Assembly: GCF_013184985.2 (NCBI RefSeq) | Contig: NZ_CP063418.1 | Location: forward strand, 1,736,001 to 1,800,000 | Length of the DNA: 64,000 nt | Source: Actinomyces faecalis | GTDB lineage: Bacteria; Actinomycetota; Actinomycetes; Actinomycetales; Actinomycetaceae | Direction: 5' to 3' | Part shown: positions 3,854 to 48,892 of the stretch, piece after piece | Numbering within the stretch: position 1 is the stretch's first letter | Layout: each line of letters opens with the position of its first letter | Made by a program: the position numbers and the translations under genes | Notes under the pieces: model-generated | What the model was told of the DNA's origin: nothing | Seen by the model: the letters and a program-made list of their open reading frames with translations, nothing else | Databases searched by the model: none

Positions 3854-5111
3854 GGTTCCTCCTGCGGGATGTCACGACGGACAGGCTACGACGCACGGCC
3901 CCGGCCCTGGCCGCGAAGGCCTCGGGCGCGCCGGGCTCCTGACGCGCGAAGGACAGCAGCACGCCGATGGCCAGGAGCACGAAGATGAGCGAGGACCCGC
4001 CTGCGCTGATCAGCGGCAGAGGCACGCCCAGCACCGGCAGCAGCCCGACGACGACGCTCATGTTGACCAGCGCCTGCCCCACGATCCAGGCCATGATGCC
4101 ACCGGTCACCACCGAGACGTACAGGTCGTTGCTGCGGCGGATGATGCGCACGCAGCACCAGCCCACCACGGCAAAGAGCACGATGACGACGACGGTGCCT
4201 ACCAGGCCCAGCTCCTCGCCCAGCACGGCGAAGACGTAGTCGGAGTCGGCCTGGGTGAGGTAGCCCCACTTCTGCCGGGAGGAGCCGGGCCCCACCCCGC
4301 CCCAGCCACCGGTCCCCATGGCGTAGCGGCCGTGGAGAGGCTGGTAGCCCACGTCCAGAGGGTCGGAGCCGGAGGGGTTGAGCCAGGCCATGATGCGCGC
4401 ACGCCGGTTGGCCGAGAGCATCGTTCCCGCGGCGAAGCCCACCAGGCCCACTCCCCCCAGCACGAGGAACCAGCCTCGTCCCAGACCAGCCATCCACAGC
4501 GCCCCGGCCATGAGCATGGCCATGATGACCACGGTGCCCAGGTCACCGCCGCCCAGGACGAGCGTGATGGCTGCCGCTGCCGGCGCGAGCATGAGCAGGG
4601 TGCTCCTGACCGAGGAGAACCGACCGCCGCGGCGCGCCACGGCCCACCCGGTGTACAGCGCCAGCCCGAGCTTGATGAACTCCGAGGGCTGGGCGGTACC
4701 GATGAGAGGCACCGCCACCCAGTTGCAGTTCCCGCCGGCGCAGCGACTGGCCCCGGGGACGAAGACCAGGCACTGCAGCGCCATCGACGTCGCCAGCACC
4801 GGCAGCGTCACCTTCTTGAGCAACGGGATCGTGGCACGCGAGGCGGCGAGCATGGCGGCCAGGCCCACCAGCGCGATGACCAGGTAGCGAGCGAAGGCTG
4901 CGTAGGCGTTTCCGCCCTGAGCCGCTACCGTCACCGACTGGACCGAGAAGACCATGATCAGGCCCAGGACCAGCAGGAACAAGGAGGAGATGAGCAGCGT
5001 GTAGTAGGTCAGGGAGGCCTTCTCCCCCGGCACCGGGCCGTCCGGCCCGGTCAGGGTCCGCCACCACGGGCGTGAGCGCTGCGAGCGTGCCTGAGGCTGG
5101 TCCTGCCTCAT
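3846..5111 (-). CDS. ftsW: Septal peptidoglycan glycosyltransferase FtsW (SEDS)
   Basis: FtsW is the SEDS-family polymerase that builds septal glycan strands with its partner FtsI, which is encoded in the same cluster. The product has 421 residues with about ten hydrophobic segments. A charged loop near residues 285-300 (DSDYVFAVLGEELG) carries the acidic residues typical of SEDS proteins, and PLPLISAGGSS lies near the C-terminus. The ends are basic and cytoplasmic. It overlaps murD by four bases (ATGA) and murG by eight. RodA is a paralogue, but the dcw position favours FtsW. Confidence 0.95.
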   Translation of the reverse strand: MRQDQPQARSQRSRPWWRTLTGPDGPVPGEKASLTYYTLLISSLFLLVLGLIMVFSVQSVTVAAQGGNAYAAFARYLVIALVGLAAMLAASRATIPLLKKVTLPVLATSMALQCLVFVPGASRCAGGNCNWVAVPLIGTAQPSEFIKLGLALYTGWAVARRGGRFSSVRSTLLMLAPAAAAITLVLGGGDLGTVVIMAMLMAGALWMAGLGRGWFLVLGGVGLVGFAAGTMLSANRRARIMAWLNPSGSDPLDVGYQPLHGRYAMGTGGWGGVGPGSSRQKWGYLTQADSDYVFAVLGEELGLVGTVVVIVLFAVVGWCCVRIIRRSNDLYVSVVTGGIMAWIVGQALVNMSVVVGLLPVLGVPLPLISAGGSSLIFVLLAIGVLLSFARQEPGAPEAFAARAGAVRRSLSVVTSRRRNRA

Positions 5112-44219: not shown

Positions 44220-44984
44220 TTAGCACCGGGCGGGTGTGACGGTCACAGCACTGAGGAAGACCTGCTGGTTATTGCGGCAGATGTTGCCCTTACCGCTCGG
44301 GATCGGGTTGGTGTAGGTGATGGTCAGGGAGGTCACCGACTCCCCTGAGACCGTGTAGGTGACGTCACCGCGAGTCGATGTCTCGGCACTGATCTCTGAC
44401 ACCGCCTCCCTGTCCCACTCGGGCTCGACCGCAGGACGCGCCTCCACGGTGGACGTGCCGCTCCCCGTGACCGCGACGAAAGCCGGGTCCTTTGCCTGCG
44501 CCTGGATCTTCGCCCCGTCAACCGACACTGTGACGACGTCTATGTAGCTGGTATCAACAGGAAAGTCCCGTAGCCGCATGGCGTCGATGTCGTGGATGGT
44601 GAACGAGACCTCTGACATCGGCTTCGGGAAGGTGATGACGACGGTCTCACCGGCGGAGTTGATCCCACAGGTGCCCAGGGCCAGCCAGGTACCCGGGATG
44701 GCCGTAAAAGACGTGATGACGCCATTGGTGTAATCGTTCTGTCGTCCCGGATTCTGCCGATGGTCGTCAAGGGTCTTGCCGTTGAGCGTGATCGACGCGC
44801 TCGCCGCCATCCCGCTGCCGGTGAGCGGGATAGTCGTCTGCTCCTTCTTCGTGTTCGTCCACTGCAGCGTGGTCGGGTCGCAGGCGGACAACGCCGCAGC
44901 GGGTGCCGCGGGTGCTATCACGATCGCGGGCGCGGCCCATGAGGCCCCCTTCATCACCGTTCGTCGCCTCATCCCCTCAGTCAT
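44220..44984 (-). CDS. Tat-exported secreted protein, unknown function
   Basis: I do not recognise a family. The 254-residue product starts MTEGMRRRTVMKGASWAAPA, a twin-arginine signal of the actinobacterial RRRTVMKGA-WAAPA type, with cleavage probably after AAALSA. The mature part is mostly beta-strand-like with Thr/Ser/Val richness (ETVVITFPKPMSEVSFTIHD; TSLTITYTNPIPSGKGNICR) and has cysteines near both ends and in LGTCGIN. It looks like a surface or adhesin-like domain. ATG 44984 has GAGAGGAG nine bases upstream and the Arg pair five residues later. It converges with the lipoprotein gene. Upstream are two long G-tracts. Confidence 0.7.
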   Translation of the reverse strand: MTEGMRRRTVMKGASWAAPAIVIAPAAPAAALSACDPTTLQWTNTKKEQTTIPLTGSGMAASASITLNGKTLDDHRQNPGRQNDYTNGVITSFTAIPGTWLALGTCGINSAGETVVITFPKPMSEVSFTIHDIDAMRLRDFPVDTSYIDVVTVSVDGAKIQAQAKDPAFVAVTGSGTSTVEARPAVEPEWDREAVSEISAETSTRGDVTYTVSGESVTSLTITYTNPIPSGKGNICRNNQQVFLSAVTVTPARC

Positions 44985-45060
44985 CGCGGGGCACTCCTCT
45001 CGTGATACGAGCAAATAACAGTCCACCCCCACAGAGAGGGCGCTCTGATCATTCACCCCG

Positions 45061-47199: not shown

Positions 47200-48030
47200 T
47201 CAGCCGGCAGCGGGCAGGTGTGGGGCGATGAGCCGCAGGGCACGGGGCAGAGCCTCGCCCACGACAGGATCGTCCAGGCCCGGATGCGTTCCCTGCGGCC
47301 AGTACCGCAGGTCCTCGCTCCTGGTCCAGATGACGCGTCCGCTGGTGCCTGTCTCCAGGGTCTCCAGGCTGGTGGCAGCCAGGTCGTCGTCACGCACGAC
47401 GACGGCGGTCCGCGCCCTCATGCCCTCACCGCTCGCGTCCCACCGCGGGCTGGTCTCGATGAGGCGCCACACCGTGCCCTGAGCCAGCACGTGCCAGCTC
47501 GACGGCCACCAGCCCTCCAGCCCCTCGCACAGGGGCGCCTCGACCACTCCTCCCTCCGCCAGCGGTGGCGCAGGCGTAGAACGCAGCCGCCTGACACCCT
47601 CCAGGAGCTGACCGGCGAGAACAGTTCGTCCGCCGTGCGCCGCACCGCTCCTCGCGTTCGCACCGGTCTCCGGCTCGCCGGGCCGCGGCCGTGGGGGCGA
47701 GGCTAAGGGCTCTCGTGCGATGAGCTCGTCCTGCCCGTGCCGCCAGGCCACGCAGAGCAGGTCCTCACGCTCCTGGTAAGCCTCAGTGACGACCTGGAGG
47801 ATCTCGACCGGGTACGAACCGGGCCAGGTCACCGTCTCCGCCCTGCCCGGCAGGAGGACACAGGCCAGGGTCACCTCCGGCCAGCCACCCAGCACCGGGA
47901 CGGCAGAGCCGCCAGCGTACCGACCACCTGGGGCCACCGGCCAGGGACTGATGATCACGTCGCTCACGGCAGTCATCCCGACTGCCTCACGGCTCAGGCC
48001 CGTGGGAATCGTGAAGGGACACACGTTCAT
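47200..48030 (-). CDS. Hypothetical protein
   Basis: I do not recognise this gene. From ATG 48030 it encodes 276 residues, beginning MNVCPFTIPTGLSREAVGMT; a later ATG at 47976 (MTAVSDVIISPWPV) has GAGG upstream and is also possible. There is no signal peptide or membrane helix. The N-terminal half has YPVEILQVVTEAYQEREDLL; the middle is Pro/Gly/Arg-rich; the C-terminal half has Trp-rich segments (GWWPSSWHVLAQGTVWRLIE, RVIWTRSEDLRYWPQG). Starting further upstream at 48093 would translate the palindromic operator, so it is rejected. It is divergent from the secreted-protein gene and shares its control region. Confidence 0.6.
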   Translation of the reverse strand: MNVCPFTIPTGLSREAVGMTAVSDVIISPWPVAPGGRYAGGSAVPVLGGWPEVTLACVLLPGRAETVTWPGSYPVEILQVVTEAYQEREDLLCVAWRHGQDELIAREPLASPPRPRPGEPETGANARSGAAHGGRTVLAGQLLEGVRRLRSTPAPPLAEGGVVEAPLCEGLEGWWPSSWHVLAQGTVWRLIETSPRWDASGEGMRARTAVVVRDDDLAATSLETLETGTSGRVIWTRSEDLRYWPQGTHPGLDDPVVGEALPRALRLIAPHLPAAG

Positions 48031-48060
48031 TCTTTGCTGCTCTTCCCGCACGAGAACGAT

Positions 48061-48101
48061 GCGCATATGCTTCATATGCGCTACATGTTTCATCTACAGT
48101 A
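48061..48101. promoter_or_regulatory. Divergent control region with a 21-bp palindrome
   Basis: GCGCATATG CTT CATATGCGC (48061-48081) is a perfect palindrome. Next to it, TACAGT (plus, 48095-48100) and TACTGT (minus, 48101-48096) are overlapping -10-like hexamers for the two divergent genes. The palindrome would overlap the plus -35 region and lie just downstream of the minus start, a typical repressor position. The regulator is unknown. Confidence 0.55.
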
Positions 48102-48134
48102 GCGCTCAGTCGCATTCAACCAAAGGAGATTGAC

Positions 48135-48703
48135 ATGCGCCCCCCAGAATCGCCGCACTGATTGTCACGCTCTGCCTCGCCTTCCTCGCACCGCCGAGCC
48201 ACGCTGCGACAGCCTTCGATGAGCACGCACTGCGAGACTGGTTGACCTCCTACGGGGTTCCAGCCGAGCTACAGCAGCACACAGCTGACAAGGTCCAAGC
48301 CGGCGAGCAGCTCGAGGCCGATCAGGAGTACAAGGGCTCACCCGATGAGACCCATTCAGCAAACACTAGTTTTCGAAAAGTGTCTGGATGCACGTACAAG
48401 AGTGCGGGCAGCGCCTGGGTCGGATACTGGACAAACTGCCGAGCTGAGCACGCCAACACGTACGGAAGCTTATTCGTGACCGTCAACTACGAGAACATCG
48501 CGGGGTCTGGTTCACGCATCACGAGCTACTGGGGCGCTGGCGGTCACGCCACCTACGGTGGAGGCTCCTTCCGCGCCCAGCGGATCTCCGCCAACAAGAT
48601 TCTGGTCCTCGGGGACTTCCACAGCTACGGAGGGCAAGACACCGACACCAAGGGAATGTACGTGACGTCCTCCGGGCCGGGCCTCACGACATCGACCTAC
48701 TAG
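48135..48703 (+). pseudogene. Secreted protein gene with a frameshift at a C6 run
   Basis: ATG 48135 has a strong ribosome binding site (AAAGGAG, seven bases away). Translation from it stops after eight codons. The C6 run at 48140-48145 shifts the frame: with one more C the product would read on through a signal peptide (RIAALIVTLCLAFLAPPSHA) into a mature protein of about 160 residues ending GLTTSTY at 48703. The mature part has paired cysteines (GCTYKSAGS, YWTNCRAEH) and a Gly/Tyr/Ser-rich half (ITSYWGAGGHATYGGGSF). An in-frame TGA at 48131 excludes another upstream start. It may be phase-variable, decayed or a sequencing indel. I recognise no family. Base use is less GC-rich than around. 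Confidence 0.6.
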
Positions 48704-48742
48704 TCACCTGCCACACCAAAGTAGAAAAGGACAATCAATTCC

Positions 48743-48892
48743 ATGGAAACCTGGTTTGACTACTGGATCTTCAGCCAGCACCTCGCCATTTTCATTGGCG
48801 TGATCGTCAGCAGTTGCGCGCTTGTGAGCATCGCTCGATCACTGCGTCAAGTCGTCAATATCTTACGACGCGACAAGAATTCGCAGGAATAA
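48743..48892 (+). CDS. Small membrane protein, 49 residues
   Basis: This short gene encodes METWFDYWIFSQHLAIFIGV followed by the rest of one membrane helix (about residues 12-30) and a basic C-terminus (ARSLRQVVNILRRDKNSQE). AAAAGGAC lies 11-12 bases before the ATG, a loose ribosome binding site. It starts 40 bases after the secreted-protein gene on the same strand and shares its lower GC content, so the two probably form a unit. One-helix partners of secreted toxins or peptides are known, but no homology is claimed. Confidence 0.5.
   Translation: METWFDYWIFSQHLAIFIGVIVSSCALVSIARSLRQVVNILRRDKNSQE

What the first reader, a model, noticed from the sequence alone, without database searches (positions are those of the whole stretch)
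48030..48892. Secreted-protein cassette with a frame-shifting C6 run, a tiny membrane partner and an operator-like palindrome
A gene with a strong ribosome binding site (ATG 48135) is thrown out of frame by a C6 run at 48140-48145. One more C would restore a signal peptide and a mature protein of about 160 residues up to 48703. A 49-residue one-helix protein follows at 48743-48892. A 21-bp perfect palindrome (48061-48081) and overlapping divergent -10 hexamers sit upstream, shared with an unknown gene on the other strand. The stretch is less GC-rich than its surroundings. Together this looks like a horizontally gained, possibly phase-variable secreted system.
Basis: partly seen in the sequence, partly recalled or inferred. 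Interest (0 to 1): 0.7.

Follow-up and report, generated by a model that had tools for sequence, protein, structure and literature searches.

The report
Out-of-frame secreted protein with membrane partner
A bacterial gene for a secreted protein is out of frame at a run of six C's right after its start; some of its relatives in other bacteria of the order break at similar G or C runs in the same early part of the gene while a tiny neighbouring membrane protein stays intact, which looks like a slip-prone off-switch or a gene that is discarded again and again.

The parts
48124..48128 (+). Shine-Dalgarno AGGAG of the secreted-protein gene
   Evidence: sequence; AAGGAG also in both relatives
48135..48161 (+). 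ATG and short out-of-frame reading (MRPPESPH, stop 48159-48161)
48140..48145 (+). C6 run at which the ATG frame and the main frame part
   Evidence: same run and offset in G013 and G047
48140..48703 (+). Main frame: signal peptide (to about 48205) and secreted protein; broken at its 5' end; about 32 residues shorter in the middle than P0003
   Evidence: purifying selection in this frame
48743..48892 (+). 49-aa single-helix membrane partner with basic C-terminal tail, intact
48061..48081 (.). Perfect 9+3+9 inverted repeat upstream; role unknown, unique in the genome
47203..47976 (-). Divergent gene of unknown function (conserved part); not part of the module
   Evidence: conserved in G018 and G043, which lack the module:

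Best explanation
The locus is an OFF copy of a two-gene module of Actinomycetes: a Sec-secreted protein with a conserved Cys pair, whose C-terminal beta domain is predicted to fold like Listeria Zea (Lmo2686), followed by a small membrane partner. Its 5' end is a slip-prone region: G/C runs of 6-7 in the signal-peptide code gain or lose a base during replication and throw the gene out of frame, so that cells without secreted protein arise often while the partner stays intact. In the window the run is in the OFF phase. Shown: the frame break, its presence in three species, the conserved pair, the concentration of G/C runs and breaks at the 5' end, past selection on the main frame. Inferred: slippage as the cause, reversibility (phase variation), the reason for switching off (cost, toxicity or immune visibility of the secreted protein), and that the partner protects the producer or anchors/handles the secreted protein.
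For: C6 and offset identical in the window, G013 and G047. Four further independent signal-peptide breaks at G6/G7 in distant copies: L050 and L040, L061 and L062. Offset of the main frame relative to the ATG frame: -1 in window, L040, L050, L062; +1 in L061, so both directions occur, as slippage would give. G/C runs of 6 or more: 11 in 6360 nt (first 120 nt of 53 copies), 6 in 31030 nt of the rest, 27 in 146937 nt of flanks; counting related copies once, 8 runs in 50 copies, Poisson P 3e-5 against the rest of the gene. 8 of 50 against 5 in 236 control ORFs have such a run in the first 120 nt (Fisher 3e-4; counts after removing two rows that were the family itself, test; before removal 7 in 238, P 0.001). 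Intact copies carry such runs too: 4 (3 independent) in 4320 nt against 3 in 21777 nt. Main frame under purifying selection between window and G013: dN/dS 0.20/0.60 and 0.165/1.19; codon-position bias P 0.07 for the N-terminal and 6e-4 for the C-terminal segment. Partner intact just downstream in 10 of 17 broken copies, and upstream in L043 and L112.
Against: No length variation of any tract between strains was seen or could be tested; metagenome cluster P0007 (15 members; one representative seen) is in the same off frame as G374. Runs of 6-7 are short for contingency loci (recalled). Ten of the 17 breaks are not at runs: stop codons (L043, L051, L052, L054), a 7-bp duplication (L071), shifts or truncations without a run (L060, L065, L099, L107, L112). 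G013/G047 carry a second frame-breaking deletion and the window copy lacks about 32 residues, as in decay. The enrichment in intact copies alone is weak (P 0.02 Poisson, 0.06 Fisher). The signal-peptide-like control set is too small to exclude a general tendency of GC-rich signal peptides: 19 ORFs with 2 runs, P 0.44; 17 with 0 after removing the family's own two rows, P 0.08.
Confidence: 0.48

Rival explanations
1. Ordinary recurrent decay: the secreted gene is costly or useful only for a time, is inactivated again and again (often early, often at the most mutable runs), and the partner is kept because it still protects or is neutral. The window copy is a young pseudogene.
For: 17 of 53 copies broken by many kinds of lesion; second lesions in G013/G047; remnant of the partner and no secreted gene in G045; no match in 46 of 49 genus genomes; between G013 and G047 the C-terminal part has 3 nonsynonymous and 0 synonymous changes.
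Against: 14 of 17 first in-frame stops (12 of 15 with the window clade counted once) lie in the first 67 of about 235 codons (binomial 6e-6 and 5e-5; the limit of 67 was chosen after seeing the data and degraded fragments were left out); G/C runs are also enriched in intact copies; the main frame stayed under purifying selection over dS 0.6-1.2 although both lineages share the same break.
Confidence: 0.38
2. Programmed expression: ribosomes shift by -1 at the C CCC CCA heptamer just after initiation (or RNA polymerase slips at C6), so the gene is working and the break is regulatory.
For: C6, offset and AAGGAG conserved in three species; the ATG-frame codons form a slippery X XXY YYZ heptamer (sequence; motif recalled); selection on the main frame.
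Against: The RNA downstream of the run folds less well than shuffles (196 and 199 of 200 shuffles fold at least as well in the two stretches tried); L061 is offset in the other direction and the G7 of L040 is no such heptamer in the ATG frame; most distant copies have no run and start in frame; G013/G047 have a further break downstream.
Confidence: 0.09
3. Assembly or sequencing error in a homopolymer.
For: Homopolymers are error-prone (general knowledge).
Against: Same run length and offset in two other species' assemblies (named).
Confidence: 0.02

Closest known systems
Zea / Lmo2686 of Listeria monocytogenes (PDB 4K15), secreted RNA-binding protein
   Different: Sequence match not significant; the family has an N-terminal two-helix region and a Cys pair whose counterpart in Zea I did not check; its partner gene is a small membrane protein, whereas lmo2686 lies in an operon with ftsW2/rodA3 (PMC6686043, passages). 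RNA binding and hexamer not tested.
Slipped-strand contingency loci; frameshift-indel silencing in Mycobacterium tuberculosis (PMC8339072, abstract)
   Same: G/C run in the 5' coding region coincides with the frame break; nucleotide repeats are unstable in mismatch-repair-lacking M. tuberculosis, also an actinobacterium (PMC2430213, abstract).
   Different: Switching not shown here; runs only 6-7 long; mismatch-repair genes of the window genome not searched.
Secreted bacteriocin with membrane immunity protein
   Same: Secreted protein directly followed by a 1-2 helix membrane protein (37 of 53 copies); partner often outlives the secreted gene; 4 of 6 partners scanned resemble PLDc_N, two above cut-off.
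   Different: No bacteriocin family model reaches its cut-off (JUQZ_fam_ocin 14.5 bits against 40); nine intact copies have no partner found within -30 to +60 nt; no killing shown.

Membership tests
Phase-variable contingency locus (slipped-strand) | Repeat tract in the coding region exactly at the frame break | tested here: met
   window C6; L040, L050, L061, L062
Phase-variable contingency locus (slipped-strand) | Tract-bearing copies found in and out of frame | tested here: inconclusive
   3 independent in frame (L041/L042, L056, L073), 5 independent out of frame, but in different species and at different places in the gene
Phase-variable contingency locus (slipped-strand) | Tract length differs between clones or strains of one species | not testable with these tools
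   no reads, one genome per species
Zea / Lmo2686 | Same beta fold | tested here: met
Zea / Lmo2686 | Significant sequence homology | tested here: inconclusive
   profile E 0.043 and 0.066
Zea / Lmo2686 | Secreted (signal peptide) | tested here: met
   signal-peptide-like N-termini in the intact copies, judged by eye, no predictor run
Zea / Lmo2686 | Toroid hexamer that binds RNA | not testable with these tools
   needs protein
Bacteriocin-immunity pair | Adjacent small membrane protein | tested here: met
   37 of 53 against 1 of 161 control ORFs
Bacteriocin-immunity pair | Match to a curated bacteriocin family | tested here: not met
   27 members scanned against Pfam and NCBIfam (cut-offs seen): none above cut-off; JUQZ_fam_ocin hits one member at E 0.031
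Bacteriocin-immunity pair | Kills other cells; partner protects | not testable with these tools
   needs an assay
Programmed -1 frameshift gene | Slippery heptamer in frame | tested here: met
   C CCC CCA in the ATG frame (motif recalled)
Programmed -1 frameshift gene | Stimulating downstream structure | tested here: not met
   less folded than shuffles

The most novel reading that the evidence does not exclude
A family of secreted Zea-like (RNA-binding or antibacterial) proteins of Actinomycetes is built as a contingency gene: short G/C runs placed in the signal-peptide code switch secretion on and off, while a co-encoded one-helix membrane protein gives standing protection, so that a population always holds secretors and silent but protected cells.
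Probability: 0.27. Interest if true: 0.75.

Novelty: new variant of a known kind. Interest (0 to 1): 0.5.

Why it matters
It defines a secreted-protein/membrane-partner module in Actinomycetes of which none of 27 members scanned matches a Pfam or NCBIfam model above cut-off, links it by predicted fold to the secreted bacterial RNA-binding protein Zea, and shows that part of its frame breaks fall on G/C runs that are concentrated in the signal-peptide region. If the runs switch, it would be a simple, testable case of phase-variable secretion in high-GC Gram-positive bacteria.

Full report
What is there. At 48124-48128 lies AGGAG, at 48135 an ATG, and at 48140-48145 six C. The ATG frame ends after eight codons. 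The neighbouring frame, open from just after a TGA at 48131-48133 to TAG at 48701-48703, reads as a signal peptide followed by about 165 residues. A 49-residue one-helix ORF follows at 48743-48892. GC is 0.57-0.59 here against 0.62-0.74 in the windows around. The finding's description is accurate.

Not an error. Copies in G013 (A. glycerinitolerans) and G047 (A. succiniciruminis AM4; names from the matching contigs) have ATG-CG-C6 with the same frame offset, the same AAGGAG, a homologous 60-aa partner (51% and 49% identity) and the same GNAT neighbour. With the window genome they are the 3 of 49 genus genomes that match the secreted protein; a fourth, G045, keeps a broken remnant of the partner at the same place. 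P0003, a 219-aa protein of an A. succiniciruminis MAG annotated 'partial' and beginning at the K of KIAALI, and P0004, from unclassified Actinomyces and beginning MPPIK, are further relatives; their DNA could not be read. P0004 suggests that a copy with an in-frame start exists, although its sequence carries the internal break of G013/G047.

Selection. Between window and G013, the N-terminal 58 codons give NG86 dN 0.20, dS 0.60, and the C-terminal 62 codons dN 0.165, dS 1.19; differences by codon position are 13/8/20 and 11/9/29 (chi-square P 0.07 and 6e-4). The main frame was therefore probably under purifying selection for most of that time. Either the shared break did not abolish use of the gene, or it arose twice at the same run, or both lineages lost the gene late. 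Against continued use, G013 and G047 share an internal frame-breaking deletion, their C-terminal parts differ by 3 nonsynonymous and 0 synonymous changes, and the window copy lacks about 32 residues present in P0003.

Origin at the site. The adjoining genes match G018 and G043 at 89-90% DNA identity, and these lack the pair; G013/G047 match at 78-81%. dS of ispG (0.51) and GNAT (0.93) between window and G013 is like that of the pair. A single old presence with repeated loss explains this better than recent gain, but repeated insertion at one place is not excluded. In G018 another small secreted-looking gene occupies the site, and 61 bp of it survive in the window at about 47973-48033 (82% identity), inside the ORF the finding called the divergent gene; that gene is conserved only from residue 37-38.

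The family. Profiles built from the window and relatives found copies in 22 of 396 order genomes, 18 of 213 family genomes, 3 of 38 genomes of the genus of G374, 18 of 221 genomes of family f8 and 6 of 47 of family f11; the sets overlap and the carrier counts include fragments. Of 27 members scanned, none matches a Pfam or NCBIfam model above its cut-off (the single hits with their cut-offs are). Seven proteins scanned against PADLOC and PHROGs gave nothing informative. Conserved features are a region with G-V and K-x3-G, a 'DGS' motif and two Cys.

The pair. By one rule (28-115 aa, 17-residue hydrophobic mean of 2 or more, start -30 to +60 nt from the stop) 37 of 53 copies have a small membrane protein downstream, against 1 of 161 control ORFs from the same stretches. 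In L043, L111 and L112 such a protein lies upstream instead. Of six partners scanned, four resemble PLDc_N at E below 0.01, two of them above the cut-off. Nine intact copies have none by the rule; four of these are the two neighbouring pairs in G605 and G672. Among 17 broken copies the partner is intact just downstream in 10, and upstream in L043 and L112.

The breaks. Of 53 copies 36 are intact by my reading and 17 broken. The first in-frame stop lies within 67 codons of about 235 in 14 of 17 (12 of 15 with the window clade counted once; binomial 6e-6 and 5e-5). The limit was chosen after seeing the data, and far-gone fragments were left out. Five independent breaks lie on a G/C run in the signal-peptide region: window clade C6 at codons 2-4, L050 G6 at codons 7-9, L040 G7 at codons 32-34, L061 G7 at codons 16-18, L062 G7 at codons 11-13 (positions). 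L061 is offset the other way from the other four. The remaining ten broken copies show stop codons (L043, L051, L052, L054), a 7-bp tandem duplication (L071), or shifts or truncations without a run (L060, L065, L099, L107, L112). G/C runs of 6 or more: 11 in 6360 nt of 5' ends, 6 in 31030 nt of the remainder, 27 in 146937 nt of flanks. Counting the window clade once and L041/L042 once leaves 8 in 50 copies (Poisson 3e-5 against the rest of the gene; Fisher 3e-4 against 5 in 236 control ORFs, counts with the family's own two rows removed, test). Among signal-peptide-like controls only 17 were usable (0 runs, P 0.08; with the two family rows 2 of 19, P 0.44), which decides nothing. In intact copies alone the excess is weak (P 0.02 and 0.06).

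How it most likely works. The secreted protein's start region is slip-prone; loss or gain of a base in a G/C run puts the gene off while the partner is still made. Whether the switch is used (phase variation) or is merely one usual way this gene dies cannot be told without strain-level data. M. tuberculosis shows that frameshift indels may silence genes reversibly (PMC8339072, abstract) and that nucleotide repeats are unstable without mismatch repair (PMC2430213, abstract); the mismatch-repair genes of the window genome were not searched. The programmed-frameshift alternative lacks a downstream structure and a consistent direction across the family.

Literature. The searches listed nothing on this Actinomycete family or its pair, but the family has no name to search for and only open-licence PMC papers are held, so absence from print is not established.

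Noticed in passing
window 47973-48033: Relic (61 bp, 82% identity) of a small secreted-looking gene that is longer in the related species G018 (L038 about 4007-4465, minus strand); the site between the divergent gene and GNAT seems to turn over small secreted genes.
   Followed up: partly
G605 C25 (L089/L105) and G672 C7 (L090/L106): Neighbouring pairs of diverged copies of the secreted gene, with no small membrane partner found by the rule used.
   Followed up: partly
L043 (G374), L111 (G773), L112 (G251): In family f11 a small membrane protein lies upstream of a broken or degraded secreted gene instead of downstream.
   Followed up: partly
L007 2111-2530 minus strand (G047): A PIN-domain-like ORF (by eye) and transposase-like remnants next to the module in A. 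succiniciruminis AM4.
   Followed up: no
window 44220-45056 minus strand: 278-aa ORF whose start looks like a twin-arginine signal (MRRRTVMKG); no Pfam family above cut-off.
   Followed up: no
P0007 cluster (15 member sequences): A metagenome relative of the G374 copy is called from a start inside the off frame, so gene callers give a protein without its signal peptide.
   Followed up: no
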